This document shows positions 3,840 through 63,193 of a DNA stretch of 64,000 nt, in pieces. Under the pieces are notes generated by a model. That model worked only from the letters and a program-made list of their open reading frames with translations, had not been told where the DNA came from and searched no databases. The position numbers and the translations under genes are program-made. Within the stretch, counting starts at the first letter, position 1, and the number at the start of each line of letters is the position of its first letter. The DNA comes from Desulfopila aestuarii DSM 18488 (GTDB lineage: Bacteria > Desulfobacterota > Desulfobulbia > Desulfobulbales > Desulfocapsaceae), in the NCBI GenBank assembly GCA_945863875.1, contig CAMBBS010000004.1, forward strand, positions 1-64,000, in the 5' to 3' direction.

Positions 3840-4952
3840 TCACTGTGTATATCGATTGCGCAACTCAAGCCACTTGTCTGTTTCCATGAATTTCAGAAGT
3901 GCCTTGTTTATCGGTTTGCGGAGCAAACTTTTATTCTGTAAAGCCATGCTGACGAAGTATTCATCGAAGGTTCCTGGCAGAACCTGCACTCGCCCGGGGA
4001 ACTCCTTTTTCACCAGATACCTCAATATCTGCTCGTTGAGAACGAAGGCATCGACCTCTTTATCGGCAACCCCTTGCAGTCCTTCCTGTGGTCCTTGCAA
4101 GGGAATTACGGTTATTCCCTGTTTGGACAAAAAATGGAAACCTTCCGATCTGGGAATCGATCCGACTCGCGCATTGTAAAGATCATGAAAGCCGCGAACC
4201 TTGCCTCTTAACTCCGCAATGGTCAGAGATGTGGTGATGTTGGCTGTAATGCTGGCGATAAAAATTATTGAAAAAATCATCCAGATCAGCGCAAAAATCC
4301 GCCCACCCATTGTCTTGGGGGCCTTGTCGCCATAGCCCACAGTGGTCATTGTCACCATCGCCCACCAAATGCCGTGACCTATTCCCCTAACAGTTCCATC
4401 GCCGAACATTTCACTGTTCCTGCGCCTTTCAAATCCCCAGACGATAATCCCGGTTATCAGCGACAGTAAAAGCAGCAAGCCTATGGCTTTTAGAATATGC
4501 CTTGAAAAGATACTTTCGAAAATACGAAACCATCTGAATTCATAACCTTCAAAAGCTACCGCAATGGACAGTCCTGATTTTATATATGATTGACTGAAGT
4601 CTAATGTCGATTCGAAACGTTCTTCAACTGCCAGGGCCGGAATGACATCTATCTCCTGTTTTTCCAGGGCATGCAGCACCTCCTCCAGGGTGTTGAATTC
4701 CCGAAATTCATATGGTGTGTTTATATGTTCCGCCACGGCCTGCCATAGCTCGACGGCTAATCCCTCCCATCGACCATCACTGGTTTTCATGCACAACGGC
4801 GGAGCCGCAATCACCCCCACCTGTAGCACAGGTGGGGGTCCACTCTGATTTTCTGAACATGAAGTTGCAGGGCACAATAAGCAAAGCCAGAGCCCAAACA
4901 TTCCGTAAAAAATAAAATGGAAAGTTTTGTGGTTGTCGGGCATGATGCTCAT
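3840..4952 (-). CDS. Prokaryotic glutamate-receptor-type (GluR0-like) potassium channel
   Basis: The 370-residue product starts at the ATG ending at 4952 (MSIMPDN); ATG at 4943 is the alternative. Order of parts: a hydrophobic signal with a possible lipobox (ATSC near residue 32), a periplasmic solute-binding lobe (about 40-140), membrane helix M1 (about 152-173), a pore loop with TTVGYGDK (203-210), helix M2 (about 218-242), then the second binding lobe. TVGYGD is the K+ selectivity filter, and the split binding protein is the arrangement of GluR0. Residue-level ligand (probably an amino acid) cannot be assigned. The open frame runs upstream into a decayed IscB tail, which is probably not translated as part of the protein. 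Confidence 0.88.
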   Translation of the reverse strand: MSIMPDNHKTFHFIFYGMFGLWLCLLCPATSCSENQSGPPPVLQVGVIAAPPLCMKTSDGRWEGLAVELWQAVAEHINTPYEFREFNTLEEVLHALEKQEIDVIPALAVEERFESTLDFSQSYIKSGLSIAVAFEGYEFRWFRIFESIFSRHILKAIGLLLLLSLITGIIVWGFERRRNSEMFGDGTVRGIGHGIWWAMVTMTTVGYGDKAPKTMGGRIFALIWMIFSIIFIASITANITTSLTIAELRGKVRGFHDLYNARVGSIPRSEGFHFLSKQGITVIPLQGPQEGLQGVADKEVDAFVLNEQILRYLVKKEFPGRVQVLPGTFDEYFVSMALQNKSLLRKPINKALLKFMETDKWLELRNRYTQ

Positions 4953-5766
4953 AACTCTTGTTGATTTCGCTGACGTTCGAGGAAAACCGTAGTTATCCAC
5001 CCGGCACATCTGCCGTGATCCTCTGCCAGCAGCAGAAACATTGAGAGGTTGCAGTCCCGGCGGAAGGGGACACGCCCGCCTGTTGCACCGCCACAAACGG
5101 CATCAAGCCAATGGGATTTTCCGCAGCTTTGGTTCGTCCGGTTATACTTGGTTCTTCCTCCGGATCAGAAGGAAACCTGCAGGCCGAATTCCTTCAACCT
5201 GCCGCCGGTGGCATATCGAATCGATTGCGGCACCATCCTGTAACGGTGCTTTGGCTCGGGCAAGAGTGCCGATGAACCGTTTACAAAGATATTCTCTGAC
5301 TTCGTATCCGGCCAATTCCCCTTGCTGAGATTCAACACCTGAAATTTCAGGATTCTGCATGAGCTGCGTATCAAAACGCACTGTTTCAACGATAATCCCG
5401 GATACTGGAGCAAAGTTGATGCGACGCTTTGCCCAGGTAAAACATTGTCCACCCTGGAGAGAGGAGATGGGGCTATCCAGCCTTGAGGTCTTGTGCGGTT
5501 CTGAAACCTAGGGCTGACGGTATCTGGTTTTTCTCTTGCCCCTGCTGACACTCTGCCACCAGGGCAATGGTTGTCGTCTTGCTCCCTGGATCGAGCTTTA
5601 ACTCAAGATCTTGAACATCACTGCCGCTCGTTTCTTTTAAAATGATACTAAAAGGACATTTTTTATAGACAGCGGCTTTTCCCTTTCGCAAAAGCTCCCT
5701 CGCCCTTGCCGGATGGCAAGGCATCAAAGGCATTTTGTTTTTGTCTATGACCAACACATGCTGCAT
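4953..5766 (-). pseudogene. iscB: Decayed IscB (RNA-guided nuclease relative), multiple internal deletions
   Basis: The N-terminus (from ATG at 5766) is nearly identical to the intact IscB at 61641, including the PLMP segment KMPLMPCHPARAREL and the RuvC-I region LKLDPGSKTTTIALV. A deletion then removes the stretch between AECQQG and the KRKTRYR end of the bridge helix and shifts frame. A second deletion removes the whole HNH domain, joining EYL to the KR(L/F)I segment before LARAKAPL. Further frameshifts follow. Similarity stops at 4953, just after the TSAKSTRV segment, so the C-terminal 70 or so residues are also missing. The product cannot be an active nuclease. Confidence 0.9.
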
Positions 5767-6030
5767 TGAAAGTTACCTTTGAAATTCTTCGCTTTCGCGA
5801 ATAAAAATCACCTCGGCAATGGTAATGAAAGGTTTTGTACCAGCACCACCGGCTTAACTCCTTCAACCTGTCTAACCACTTGCCGCAGAGCCTGGAACTG
5901 GTGGAGCATTCCAGAGTGCCTCTCTCTTCTTTCTTAACGTAGCCCGTTAGCCTTGCGGCCCTCTGGCTGTGCCTGGTCAACAGAGGAACGTGCTTGCACA
6001 CGCTCCGTCCTTCAGGGCGGGGTCGTTGAC
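5767..6030 (-). ncRNA. HEARO/omega-RNA region of the decayed IscB copy
   Basis: Read on the minus strand, this 264-base stretch upstream of the decayed iscB matches the region upstream of the intact iscB (61380-61640) almost base for base. It begins with GTCAACGACCCCGCCCTG and contains the CCGCAAGGCTAACGGGCTAC block. Similarity between the two copies starts abruptly at the GTCAAC at 6030, which marks the element edge. In known IscB systems the guide RNA (HEARO/omega-RNA) is encoded directly upstream of iscB, with the guide taken from flanking DNA beyond this edge. Whether it is still transcribed is unknown. Confidence 0.7.
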
Positions 6031-7690: not shown

Positions 7691-7773
7691 TTGCGTATCT
7701 TCATAAGGTATATTATACTTTGGTCTATCGAGAAAAAAACGAGATTAGAACAGGATGACATGGCGTTTGCTAT

Positions 7774-8150
7774 ATGCACGTCCATCTGGTCTTTGTGACC
7801 AGGTGCCGGAAAAAAGTGTTGGACGGAAAAGCTATCGAAATACTTCGGGAATCTTCTGGTGGGATCTGCCGGATGTTTGCAGCTGAACTGATTGAGACGA
7901 ACGGCGCAGAGGACCCTGCTCCTCTGCTCCGTTTTTTATCCGCCCAAGGTGGCTGTCTCTGCCCTGGTGAACAGCCTGCAAGGCGTTGCGCCCAGGATAT
8001 TGAGGAAGCGTTATCCCCGGACAGCCGAAAGGTATGACAAAGATGTTCTTTGCAGTCCGAGCTGCTTTGCACCTTCCTGCGGCGGTGCGCCGATCTCCGT
8101 TATCCGGCACCAAGTGCCCTTGGGGTACAGAAAATATCTCCTTTCGACGT
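7774..8150 (+). pseudogene. tnpA: tnpA fragment (Y1 HUH transposase)
   Basis: Translation gives HVHLVFVTRCRKKV, then GGICRMFAAELIETNGAED, with later pieces PPKVAVSALVNSLQGVAPR and CGGAPISVIRH in other frames. This is the order seen in IS200-type Y1 transposases. At least two frameshifts are present, and the metal-binding His-x-His (normally DHVHLL) is replaced by DPAPLL. The same loss occurs in the second copy. Confidence 0.8.
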
Positions 8151-38097: not shown

Positions 38098-38632
38098 ATT
38101 CTCCCCGGACCTTCTTACCTGGTGCTTCGCTTGTTGCCGATGCCGATCTAAACATATCCCTTATCTTTACATCCTCGATACACACTACCGCGTGGTTTTT
38201 GCCGATAGTGGACGAGGCGTTGTGAAGAGAGTCGTTACCGGCGTCGGCAATACGCCTAGGCAGCCGGGTTATTTTTTGTCTTGGTTCGACAGCCTGCCGC
38301 TCGGTCTGAATCGAGACCTGCCAATGATCCCCCCGCCTGGACACGGTGACATTTCCTGGTGTTCCCTCGATATCCCGGCTGTTGATAAATCGAACCCATC
38401 CTCCCTTGGGCAGGAAAACCCGATCCCCATCCAGCTTGAAATCTTGCCGGTATCGAAAGGAATCGATGCCCTGGCCTTTTTTCTTGAACCGGGGAAACCG
38501 CTGCGGATTCTTTTGATCTTGTTTGACCTTCAGCCTCTCTGTAAATGCCTTGCGTACCTTCATAAGGTAAATTATATTTTGGTCTATGGCTACAAACAAC
38601 CAGATTCGAACCGGATGACATGACGTTTTCAA
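38098..38632 (-). pseudogene. tnpB: tnpB fragment, copy 2
   Basis: From 38632 the minus strand encodes the TnpB N-terminal half with FPRFKKKGQGIDSFRY and GGWVRFINSRDIEGTPGNV, then jumps by a deletion to GKNHAVVCIEDVKIRDM, a RuvC-II region. The C-terminal zinc finger and the first RuvC motif are missing. It cannot be an active nuclease. Confidence 0.82.
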
Positions 38633-38636
38633 TTTA

Positions 38637-38997
38637 CACGTCCATCTGGCCTTTGTGACCAGATACCGGAAAAAAGTGGTGGACGGAGAAGCTGTCGAAA
38701 TACTCCGGGAATCTTTTGGTGGGATCTGCCGGAAGTTTGCAGCTGAACTGATCGAGACGAACGGAGCAGAGGACCTTGTTCCTCTGCTCGTTTTTTATCC
38801 GCCCAAGGTGGCCGTCTCTGCCCTGGTGGACAGTCTGAAAGGCGCTTCACCAGGATATTGAGGAAGCGTTATCCCGGGATAGCCGAAAGGTATGACAAAG
38901 TATTCTTTGCAGCCCGAGCTGCTTTGCACCTTCCTGCGGCACTGCGCCGATCTCCATTACCCGGCACTATGTCGAACAGCAGCTGGCAACCAGTCGA
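38637..38997 (+). pseudogene. tnpA: tnpA fragment, copy 2
   Basis: The plus strand encodes HVHLAFVTRYRKKVVDGEAV, then GGICRKFAAELIETNGAEDLVPLL, PPKVAVSALVDSLKGA and, after a frameshift, RKRYPGIAERYDKV and a C-terminal RHYVEQQ. The normal His-x-His is replaced by DLVPLL, as it is replaced by DPAPLL in copy 1. Confidence 0.82.
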
Positions 38998-60807: not shown

Positions 60808-61379
60808 AACCGGTTCCGCGCCGTTCTTTTGTGGATCTTCCCGGCTTTTTTTTTCGAAAGATTGCCGGTTAAATCGCCGCATATAAAGGGACGATAGCTC
60901 TCTTTCGTCCACGCCGCTTTTACTCTGCCCATCTGACAATTGTGTGAAAAACACGTCATAATCAGACAAATGTGTACTACACGTACCATGTAATAAAGCA
61001 TGTAAGGCTATATAGCGACAAGGGGCCACAGTGGGTCATATATGGCACTGTTTTTTTTGTCGCATAATAACAAGCGGATATGTGTAAATGTAAGCAATTG
61101 CAGTGCGGATTTGACCCAACCTGAGCCCACTTGGTGAGTATTGCTTCTTGGATATTGTTTCTTTACCGGCTGACCAGGGTTGTCCTGAGGCAAATTCCAA
61201 ATCCGGCAACGTCTGCTACTGCCGGTGTTTATCAAGGTCTGCGAGGCTAAAAGGCGCTCGGTCAATGGAAAAATTTCGCTTGAGATACGGCGGGGTCAGG
61301 CAAGATAAGAGTTACAGTGGTCTCTATTTTGCATAGCAATATTTGTTTATTGCATTGTGGGTTGGAGGATTTCGGCTCG
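60808..61379. other. Intergenic region before the IscB element
   Basis: I see no gene in this 572-base stretch. A T9 run at 60847-60855 may be part of a weak terminator of the preceding gene. The last 16 bases (61364-61379) are the expected guide segment of the IscB RNA. Confidence 0.4.
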
Positions 61380-61640
61380 TCAACTACCCCGCCCTGAAGG
61401 ACGGAGCTTGTGCAAGCAAGTTCCTGTGTTGACCAGGCACAGCCAGGGCCGCAAGGCTAACGGGCTACGTTAAGAAAGAATATATAGGCACTCTGGAATG
61501 CTCCACCAGTTCCAGGCTCTGCGACAAGTGGTTAAACAGGTTGAAGGGGTTAAGCCAGTGCCGCTTGTACAAAACCTTTCATTAACATTGCCGAGGTGGT
61601 TTTTACTCGCGAAAACGAAGAATTTTAAAGGTAACTTTAA
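61380..61640 (+). ncRNA. HEARO/omega-RNA region of the intact IscB element
   Basis: The 261 bases before iscB match the minus-strand region 6030-5767 of the decayed copy with few differences; similarity begins at the GTCAAC around 61379. Inside are the GC-rich hairpin CCCGCCCTGAAGGACGG and the GCCGCAAGGCTAACGGGC block. Known HEARO RNAs lie directly before iscB, provide its guide and carry the guide at their 5' end, outside the element. The candidate guide is therefore about 61364-61379. RNA ends and structure were not computed. Confidence 0.8.
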
Positions 61641-62948
61641 ATGCAGAATGTGTTGGTCATAGACAAAAACAAAATGCCCTTGATGCCTTGTCATCCGGCA
61701 AGGGCGAGGGAGCTTTTGCGAAAGGGAAAAGCTGCTGTCTATAAAAGATTTCCTTTTACTATCATCTTAAAAGAAAAGAGCGGCAGTGATGTTCAAGATC
61801 TTGAGTTAAAGTTCGATCCAGGGAGCAAGACGACAGGCATTGCCCTGGTGGCAGAGTGTCAGCAGGGCAGAAAGGTTGTTTGGGCCGGAGAGCTTACTCA
61901 CCGTGGACAGGCCATCAGAAATAATCTGCTCTCTCGCAGGCAGATAAGACGAAGCCGGCGCAAGAGAAAAACCAGATACCGTCAGCCTCGGTTTCAGAAC
62001 CGCACAAGACCTCAAGGCTGGATGGCCCCATCTCTTCGCTCCAGGGTGGACAATGTTTTTACCTGGGCGAAGCGTCTCATCAACTTTGCTCCAGTATCCG
62101 GGATTGTCGTTGAAACAGTGCGTTTTGATACGCAGCTCATGCAGAATCCTGAAATTTCAGGTGTTGAATATCAGCAAGGGGAATTGGCCGGATACGAAGC
62201 CAGAGAATATCTTTTGGAAAAATGGGGTCGTACGTGCGCTTATTGCGGAACCGGGAATGTGCCTCTGGAGGTAGAGCATATTGTCCCTCGGGTAAAAGGT
62301 GGCTCCAACCGGATAAGCAACCTTACCCTTTCTTGCAAACCATGCAATCAGGCCAAAGGCTCAAAGGATATACAAGATTTTTGTGACCCGAAACGGTTAA
62401 TCAACATTCTTGCCCGGGCCAAAGCACCGTTAAAGGATGCCGCCGCAATCAATTCGATTCGCTATGCCACCGGCGGCAGGTTGAAGGAATTCGGCCTGCA
62501 GGTTTTTTTCTGGTCCGGAGGAAGAACCAAGTATAACCGGATGAACCAAAGCTACGGAAAATCCCATTGGCTTGATGCGGTTTGTGTCGGTGCAACAGGC
62601 GGGCGTGTCCATATTCCGCCGGGACTGCAACCTCTCCATGTTTCTGCTACTGGCAGAGGATCACGGCAGATGTGCCGGGTGGATACATATGGTTTTCCTC
62701 GAACGTCAGCGAAATCAATAAGAGTTGTCAATGGATTTAAAACCGGGGATCTGGTCAAGGCACTGGTCAACAAAGGCAAAAAGCTCGGGACGTATGTTGG
62801 CAGGGTATCTGTGCGAAAGTCCGGCAGTTTCAATATCAAGACAGAAGCGGGTACAATACCGGGGATTTCATGGCAACATTGCTCTCTTTTGCAGCGTGCC
62901 GATGGTTACAATTACTACATGGGAGACAGCGTTTCCTCCTCCACCTGA
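61641..62948 (+). CDS. iscB: IscB RNA-guided DNA nuclease (intact)
   Basis: The 435-residue protein has the complete IscB order: PLMP segment KMPLMPCHPARAREL (11-25), RuvC-I LKFDPGSKTTGIAL (Asp59), an Arg-rich bridge helix RRQIRRSRRKRKTRYR (99-114), RuvC-II GIVVETVRFD (Glu158), an HNH domain with zinc cysteines C199/C202 and C232/C235 and the catalytic VEHIVPR (His213), RuvC-III KSHWLDAV (His309, Asp312) and a C-terminal domain. AAGGTAAC precedes the ATG. All catalytic residues are present, so it should be active. No tnpA is adjacent, so the element moves, if at all, with a transposase in trans. Confidence 0.95.
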   Translation: MQNVLVIDKNKMPLMPCHPARARELLRKGKAAVYKRFPFTIILKEKSGSDVQDLELKFDPGSKTTGIALVAECQQGRKVVWAGELTHRGQAIRNNLLSRRQIRRSRRKRKTRYRQPRFQNRTRPQGWMAPSLRSRVDNVFTWAKRLINFAPVSGIVVETVRFDTQLMQNPEISGVEYQQGELAGYEAREYLLEKWGRTCAYCGTGNVPLEVEHIVPRVKGGSNRISNLTLSCKPCNQAKGSKDIQDFCDPKRLINILARAKAPLKDAAAINSIRYATGGRLKEFGLQVFFWSGGRTKYNRMNQSYGKSHWLDAVCVGATGGRVHIPPGLQPLHVSATGRGSRQMCRVDTYGFPRTSAKSIRVVNGFKTGDLVKALVNKGKKLGTYVGRVSVRKSGSFNIKTEAGTIPGISWQHCSLLQRADGYNYYMGDSVSSST

Positions 62949-62969
62949 AGGAAGAGGTCGCCACGCTGT
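62926..62969 (+). repeat. Hairpin at the 3' end of the IscB element
   Basis: ACAGCGT (62926-62932) pairs with ACGCTGT (62963-62969), and inside it CCTC pairs with GAGG around ACCTGAAGG. This overlaps the end of iscB and is followed by AATTTTA. It resembles the subterminal hairpins of IS200/IS605-type right ends, so the element probably ends near 62970. Confidence 0.55.
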
Positions 62970-62977
62970 AATTTTAG

Positions 62978-63193
62978 ATGAAAACGAAAATTATTGTTGT
63001 GTTGATTTGCTCCTTGTTTTTCTGTGCTTCGCTCACTAATTGCGGCGGAGGCGGTGCTAAAGTCGAAAGTCATGTGAGTACTCAAACTCTGGGTCAGCAG
63101 TTAATCGATCTCGACAGAGCGTTTAAAGAAGGAGTTCTTACTGAGAAGGAATATAAAAATTCCAAACAAGCTTTGCTTAAAAAATACAAATAG
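62978..63193 (+). CDS. Small lipoprotein with SHOCT-like C-terminus
   Basis: The 71-residue protein has a lipoprotein signal (MKTKIIVVLICSLFFCASLTNC, lipobox LTNC) and a C-terminal stretch LIDLDRAFKEGVLTEKEYKNSKQALLKKY that matches the short SHOCT helix pair. It starts eight bases after the IscB element end, and no clear ribosome site is visible, so the insertion may have cut its upstream region. Confidence 0.75.
   Translation: MKTKIIVVLICSLFFCASLTNCGGGGAKVESHVSTQTLGQQLIDLDRAFKEGVLTEKEYKNSKQALLKKYK

What the first reader, a model, noticed from the sequence alone, without database searches (positions are those of the whole stretch)
61364..62970. Complete IscB element with omega-RNA and a predictable guide
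The protein keeps every catalytic residue of the RuvC and HNH centres, and the upstream 261 bases are conserved in the decayed copy at 5767-6030. Comparing the two copies fixes the 5' element edge at GTCAAC, so the guide of this copy should be the ~16 bases at 61364-61379. This is a naturally self-contained RNA-guided nuclease in a Desulfobacterota-like genome.
Basis: partly seen in the sequence, partly recalled or inferred. Interest (0 to 1): 0.75.

Follow-up and report, generated by a model that had tools for sequence, protein, structure and literature searches.

The report
IscB element lodged at start codons
The region is a complete, probably working RNA-guided DNA cutter (an IscB mobile element) sitting between a gene's ribosome-binding site and its start codon; its many broken copies in the same genome mostly sit at gene starts too and keep an open reading frame although their protein looks dead, as if they were kept so that the host gene behind them can still be translated.

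Summary
Empty sites in relatives show insertion exactly before ATGA.

The wider finding is the family. This genome holds 25-32 copies; 14 same-genus genomes searched gave no HEARO hit. Of 23 right ends, 20 open an ORF of at least 58 aa in the target ATGA/TTGA (15 with a Pfam domain: argJ, gcvPB, pncB and others); four copies split a stop-start ATGA overlap. 27 of 31 aligned copies have internal deletions. In these copies amino acids drift neutrally (dN/dS about 1), and so do omega-RNA pairs. Yet the frame stays open: stop gains 3 against 13.3 expected, other forward frames normal; 16 of 18 copies open against 8.7 expected. Shared deletion classes are multiples of three in 8 of 9, unique ones in 2 of 14.

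Best reading: a working IscB master copy plus dead copies kept as translational bridges to the host genes they displaced. Identity is shown; bridging is inferred from selection patterns, untested by expression. In three other genomes 8 of 38 located right ends are at such starts.

The parts
61363..61378 (+). predicted 16-nt guide: left flank of the element; holds the Shine-Dalgarno-like GGAGG (61364-61368) of the gene whose ATG is now at 62978
   Evidence: left edge fixed by 25 left ends and empty sites of other copies in relatives; 16 nt as guide length is recalled for IscB, not measured; a search of the own genome with 15 guide bases plus ATGA, up to 3 mismatches, found besides the element's own flank only 3-mismatch places, two of them with ATGA
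61379..62977 (+). complete IscB element, GTCAAC...TTTTAG
   Evidence: 25 left and 23 right ends compared; ungapped 495-nt empty site of another copy in a relative
61379..61606 (+). omega-RNA scaffold, HEARO RF02033
   Evidence: cmscan 154.7 bits, full model 1-211; 60 of 66 model pairs are standard
61627..61631 (+). Shine-Dalgarno-like AAAGG of iscB, 9 nt before ATG
   Evidence: AAAGG in 19 of the 21 copies that retain the region
61641..62948 (+). iscB, 435 aa, RuvC I-III plus HNH
62215..62388 (+). 174 bp (codons 192-249, the HNH region) whose in-frame loss is shared by 16 copies (alone in 6, within a total loss of 270 bp in 10)
   Evidence: in copy C23 the 270 bp align as 174 + 96, in nine others as 264 + 6, which I take as one event
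62948..62957 (+). AAGGAAGAGG, purine-rich stretch between the iscB stop and the host ATG
   Evidence: identical in 19 of 22 aligned right ends; role in reinitiation inferred
62978..62981 (+). ATGA: insertion target, predicted TAM, and start codon of the host gene
   Evidence: 22 of 23 right ends ATGA, one TTGA
62978..63193 (+). 71-aa lipoprotein-like gene that begins at the right edge
   Evidence: homologues in 3 of the 56 other genomes searched, aligned from residue 4-5 on; no Pfam hit above its cut-off
4953..6030 (-). decayed copy: omega-RNA 5801-6030, iscB remnants, 174-bp HNH loss, private frameshifts, right end lost

Best explanation
Shown: a complete IscB element (omega-RNA, iscB, defined ends) inserted exactly in front of ATGA, the start codon of a lipoprotein-like gene, and the only full-length copy found of a family of 25-32 in this genome. 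Inferred from known OMEGA biology: the omega-RNA, with 61363-61378 as guide, directs IscB to the re-formed empty site next to the TAM ATGA, so that a copy lost by excision is restored by repair. Inferred from the family: insertion cuts host genes from their ribosome-binding site or from a coupled upstream gene; the element's own ORF, with its own Shine-Dalgarno and a stop 29 nt before the host ATG (at -6, -55 or -58 in frame-shifted copies), carries ribosomes to the host start. Selection for host gene expression then keeps the ORF open long after the protein and the guide RNA have lost function.
For: Identity. Ends and empty sites. Host genes: 20 of 23 right ends open an ORF of at least 58 aa, 15 of these 20 with a Pfam domain above cut-off; 12 of 16 two-ended copies meet a gene-start definition that 11% of 1918 ATGA words in own-genome stretches meet, p 3.7e-9. 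Upstream genes of four copies end in the same ATGA (frames). Open frame without protein: dN/dS 1.20 for private changes of deleted copies and 0.84 for changes shared among deleted copies only; stop gains 3 against 13.3 expected, p 0.0007, but 19 against 14.1 and 18 against 16.0 in the other forward frames (one of the three, in C7, is no stop in its real codon); 16 of 18 copies with their own ATG open against 8.7 expected, p 1.2e-5. Deletion classes shared by copies: 8 of 9 multiples of 3, unique: 2 of 14, p 0.0007. Pair-breaking private changes in the omega-RNA at the neutral rate, 20 against 21.4. Elsewhere: 0 of 11 broken iscB copies but 23 of 46 intact ones are followed by a gene start, p 0.0018.
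Against: No expression data. The three copies without a downstream gene (ORFs of 27, 11 and 13 aa) are open too, so openness is not tied to a downstream gene within this family; three are too few to decide. In Methanosarcina, Scytonema and Microseira genomes only 8 of 38 located right ends open an ORF of 60 aa or more, so nesting at starts is not general. The broken-versus-intact contrast depends on settings: p 0.05 in a 120-nt window, and p 0.30, 0.10 and 0.015 when ORFs from 60 aa count (windows 120, 230, 350). The simulation treats copies as independent, and for the nine copies without private large deletions p is only 0.03. A same-genome control on Y1 transposase copies had too few changes to decide. 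No transposase with these ends was found in the 10 of 25 Y1 loci looked at.
Confidence: 0.68

Rival explanations
1. Ordinary IscB family with recent dead copies; the open frames are leftovers of recent function and the gene-start positions reflect only the ATGA target and loss of insertions inside genes.
For: TAM NTGA is known for IsrB; such elements are common and multi-copy (61, 61 and 45 HEARO hits in three other genomes); aligned pieces of the copies are mostly 90-96% alike to the intact one; openness does not depend on a downstream gene in the three copies that lack one.
Against: The simulation places each copy's own private changes at random, so youth is accounted for, and still expects 8.7 open copies where 16 of 18 are seen. 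Frame control. The same kind of target gives 8 of 38 gene starts in other genomes against 20 of 23 here, p 4.7e-7.
Confidence: 0.25
2. The shortened proteins (no HNH, no bridge-helix region) are a new functional mini-IscB, for instance an RNA-guided DNA-binding repressor.
For: Frame kept in shared deletions; the HNH region is lost in frame, so that these copies resemble IsrB.
Against: dN/dS about 1 in private and shared changes; RuvC-II E158 kept in 9, deleted in 14, mutated in 1, not covered in 7 of 31 rows; omega-RNA pairs neutral; several different deletions rather than one form.
Confidence: 0.04
3. Openness is needed in cis for transposition: only elements with a translated ORF move.
For: Shared, hence propagated, deletions are nearly all multiples of 3; shared changes contain no stop gains (0 against 4.3, p 0.014).
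Against: Private changes, most of which should postdate the last move, also keep the frame and show few stops (3 against 8.8, p 0.016); no transposase is encoded.
Confidence: 0.12

Closest known systems
IscB (OgeuIscB, HfmIscB, TbaIscB) OMEGA systems
   Same: PLMP start, RuvC plus HNH with the catalytic residues, HEARO-type omega-RNA directly upstream, guide from the left flank
   Different: Sits on start codons; the family has internally deleted copies that keep an open frame
IsrB
   Same: NTGA TAM reported for DtIsrB, with ATGA and TTGA targets cut (passages of PMC9581776); copies with the 174-bp loss lack HNH as IsrB does
   Different: IsrB keeps the bridge helix and is a natural nickase; here most HNH-less copies have lost the Arg-rich bridge region too and show no selection on sequence
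ORF-less HEARO elements of Methanosarcina, Scytonema and Microseira
   Same: left end GTCAAC or GTCAAT in the Methanosarcina copies printed; right ends at GTGA or ATGA where located
   Different: 55 of the 80 stretches fetched from these three genomes show no iscB match, and 30 of 38 located right ends are not at a gene start
IStrons
   Same: a mobile element whose insertion is made harmless to the host (abstract of PMC4227781)
   Different: IStrons splice out as RNA; here the element would stay in the mRNA and be translated through

Membership tests
IscB | split RuvC with D, E, H/D residues and an inserted HNH | tested here: met
IscB | N-terminal PLMP motif | tested here: met
   residues MPLMPCHPAR near the start of the ORF; aligned to the same motif of TbaIscB
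IscB | HEARO omega-RNA directly upstream | tested here: met
   154.7 bits, E 1.2e-32
IscB | guide-dependent double-strand cleavage next to a TAM | not testable with these tools
   needs biochemistry
IS200/IS605-type element | insertion without target duplication at a short fixed motif | tested here: met
   ungapped empty site of copy C10; 22 ATGA and 1 TTGA of 23 right ends
IS200/IS605-type element | Y1 transposase in or for the element | tested here: inconclusive
   none inside; 25 Y1_Tnp hits in the genome, and the 10 loci fetched show no such ends around the transposase
IsrB (for the HNH-less copies) | functional RuvC-only protein with bridge helix | tested here: not met
   bridge region deleted in most, dN/dS about 1
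Cas9 | CRISPR array and cas genes | not tested
   no dedicated search; the architecture and omega-RNA are those of IscB

The most novel reading that the evidence does not exclude
An RNA-guided mobile element family that uses a target (ATGA) which is at once start codon and, in overlapping genes, stop codon, lodges in translational coupling junctions, and is retained there after the death of its nuclease and guide RNA because its mere open reading frame has become part of how about 20 host genes are translated: selection for being translated, not for any protein sequence.
Probability: 0.45. Interest if true: 0.72.

Novelty: new variant of a known kind. Interest (0 to 1): 0.52.

Why it matters
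It suggests how an insertion at the start of important genes can be tolerated without splicing or excision, and gives a natural case of selection for an open frame with no visible selection on the amino acids. It also offers an IscB with a predicted TAM, defined edges and a predicted guide, which can be tested at once.

Tried and rejected
Mini-IscB as a selected protein: rejected by dN/dS about 1. Dispersed omega-RNAs as a selected set of guides for the one intact IscB: not supported, pair-breaking private changes are neutral; W and C77 keep 60 of 66 pairs, the other 18 copies 52-58, though the pairs were taken from the model's alignment of the window copy, which favours it. Gene-start nesting as a general IscB trait: only weakly, 18 of 51 loci against 55 of 274 control gene ends, p 0.016, and 8 of 38 located right ends in three genomes (38 right ends located in 80 stretches, which cover most of the 45 Methanosarcina hits and the best 20 of 61 in each of the other two genomes). 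Y1 transposase copies as a same-genome control for stop gain: 84 changes, undecided. A transposase with matching ends: none in 10 of 25 Y1 loci. Self-targets of the window guide: none with ATGA and fewer than 3 mismatches.

Rows left out: one of 32 copies (C29b, right end only) before the alignments. Simulations use 23 and 18 of 31 copies: the window copy and seven short or cut ones (C77, C17, C51, C52, C30, C55, C15) were left out of both, five without their own ATG (C72, C18, C33, C87, C5) also of the second. Deletion classes count losses of 30 bp or more; the 96 + 174 of C23 was counted as the shared 270-bp loss (counted as unique it would make 3 of 15). The control ATGA words come from the fetched stretches, elements included. 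Searches use 57 of the 65 loci. One search was a first rough count, replaced.

Papers: IsrB structure (PMC9581776, passages), compact Cas9d/HEARO (PMC9755519, passages), TnpB gene drive (PMC11870625, passages), IStrons (PMC4227781, abstract and outline). Among the titles and abstract starts listed by searches I saw none on IscB insertion at start codons or on open frames kept in dead copies; 25 of 41, 20 of 111 and 8 of 121 papers were listed in 35, 42 and 84, and the library holds open-licence papers only. Three earlier papers looked up by DOI (those I recall as the HEARO, OMEGA and ISC papers) were not held; I recall that the HEARO paper reports ATGA/GTGA insertion sites, so that part is probably in print.

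Full report
Observation. Rfam HEARO matches 61379-61606 on the + strand with 154.7 bits over the whole model, and 5801-6030 on the - strand with 124.4 bits. The ORF 61641-62948 (435 aa) is intact and carries RRXRR and HNH domains; its best sequence matches in the PDB are IscB proteins. The catalytic positions are present.

Family and edges. The own genome (4.69 Mb, 93 contigs, 98.5% complete) has 23 HEARO hits, 20 over cut-off, and many iscB pieces. Thirty stretches were fetched. They give 25 left ends, 22 with GTCAAC and three with one change in these six bases, and 23 right ends, ATGA in 22 and TTGA in one, mostly after TTTTAG. This makes 32 entries; those cut by contig ends may be halves of one copy, so the true number lies between 25 and 32. 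Of the 56 other genomes searched, the 14 of the same genus have no HEARO hit, and one of the same family has a weak one below cut-off: the family is a local expansion. In a relative of the same family the glutaredoxin-like/ferredoxin-thioredoxin-reductase gene pair that holds copy C10 is uninterrupted, 495 nt without a gap at 90% identity across the junction. In same-genus genomes gcvPA and gcvPB, split here by copy C5, are adjacent; in the three whose junction was printed they overlap in ATGA. A 0.55-kb repeat of the window's left flank on contig 69 also continues into an ATGA without an element.

Position. In the window the element lies between GGAGG (61364-61368) and the ATG (62978) of a 71-aa lipoprotein-like gene that has homologues in 3 of the 56 other genomes searched. 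Of 23 right ends, 20 open an ORF of at least 58 aa starting in the target. Fifteen of these 20 have a Pfam domain above cut-off: ArgJ, PilZ, FeThRed_B, GNAT/CN_hydrolase, SBP_bac_3, SIMPL, Rhomboid, Rhodanese, Macro, NAPRTase, Mrp-type ParA, Peptidase_M17, CBS, GcvP2 and CbiK; the other five (C7, C13, C57a, C55 and the window copy) have none above cut-off. Of 16 copies with both ends, 13 open an ORF of 60 aa or more, and 12 meet the stricter definition that 11% of 1918 ATGA words in the own-genome stretches meet. Four copies (C4_71k, C4_80k, C10, C5) interrupt an upstream gene exactly at its stop in the ATGA; the insertion lengthens that gene by a few codons, to +19 of the element.

Decay without closure. 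Only the window copy is full length; C77 is 98% like it over the first 154 residues but cut by its contig end. 27 of the 31 aligned copies have internal deletions of 30 bp or more, the exceptions being the window copy and three cut by contig ends. Sixteen copies share the 174-bp loss of the HNH region, ten of them within a total loss of 270 bp. Nine deletion classes are shared by copies (108, 116, 147, 174, 177, 180, 240, 270 [264 + 6] and 312 bp); all but 116 are multiples of three, and 116 has a 9-bp direct repeat at its ends and may have recurred. Of 14 unique deletions two are multiples of three (p 0.0007). Amino-acid changes are neutral: private changes in deleted copies 178 N and 59 S against 169.4 and 67.6 expected; changes shared among deleted copies only, 74 and 33 against 77.8 and 29.2; the window copy's own 9 changes are 3 N and 6 S. 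Stop gains are rare in the reading frame (3 against 13.3, p 0.0007) and not in the other forward frames (19 against 14.1, 18 against 16.0). Reading each copy from its start, or from its first in-frame codon where the start is missing, premature stops occur in 3 of 31 (C4_6k, C29a, C72); the rest are open to 62920 or beyond or to the end of their sequence. With each copy's private changes placed at random, 8.7 of 18 are expected open and 16 are (p 1.2e-5; substitutions alone p 0.003, indels alone p 0.0017; the nine copies without private large deletions p 0.03). A first run with 23 copies gave 20 against 11.5 (p 9e-6). The omega-RNA of the copies shows no such constraint: 20 pair-breaking private changes against 21.4 expected.

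Interpretation. A frame kept open with no visible constraint on the residues points to selection for translation as such. Because private changes mostly arose after the last move, selection would act on the resident copy, and the obvious object is the host gene behind it. The ORF has its own Shine-Dalgarno-like AAAGG, kept in 19 of 21 copies that retain the region, and ends 29 nt before the host ATG in front of a purine-rich stretch kept in 19 of 22; frame-shifted copies end at -6, -55 or -58, and one beyond the ATG. That a terminating ribosome can restart over such distances, and that untranslated stretches cause polarity, is general knowledge and was not tested here. Against a simple link, the three copies with no downstream gene are open as well.

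Elsewhere. Seven genomes with HEARO hits were searched and 80 stretches from three of them fetched. In 55 of these 80 there is no iscB match. Right ends could be located in 38, at GTGA or ATGA, and only 8 of them open 60 aa or more, so nesting at gene starts is not a general trait. Among 57 iscB loci of other genomes, 11 have a broken ORF; none of these is followed within 230 nt by an ATGA/GTGA opening 100 aa, against 23 of 46 intact ones (p 0.0018; nine other or equal settings p 0.001 to 0.30; by genome p 0.03). This agrees with bridging but could also reflect gene-poor cyanobacterial genomes, from which several broken copies come.

Verdict. The finding itself is a new member of a known kind, correctly read. 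Its family behaves in a way I did not see described in the papers searched, hence new variant.

Noticed in passing
window 60840-61372 and own genome contig 69:1-552 (L160): A 0.53-kb repeat, nearly identical in its first half and more diverged towards the element, lies upstream of both the IscB insertion and a TRAP-transporter-like operon on contig 69 (names from recall); the sudden change in similarity looks like gene conversion or a chimeric repeat.
   Followed up: partly
window 3840-5096 (-): The decayed IscB copy has lost its right end, and its last iscB codons run in frame into a gene for a receptor-like potassium channel with a solute-binding domain (name from recall), so that the two now lie in one open frame of 418 aa.
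   Followed up: no
window 7771-8107 and 38625-38849: Remnants of Y1 (IS200-type) transposase genes; the genome holds 25 Y1_Tnp hits, five of them over nearly the whole model.
   Followed up: partly
own genome contig 4, about 71.0 and 80.7 kb (L057, L058): Two more copies lie just outside the window; both follow upstream genes that end exactly in the target ATGA.
   Followed up: partly
L216-L255 (Methanosarcina isolate STD2_179): A 4.2-Mb archaeal genome with 45 HEARO hits, most of the stretches without an iscB match, in at least two families with different right ends (CACAT before GTGA, and CCTGCTGAG... before ATGA).
   Followed up: partly
L095, L106, L128: In these distant iscB elements the iscB stop codon appears to be the TGA of the target site itself, so that a host start codon would overlap the iscB stop.
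   Followed up: no
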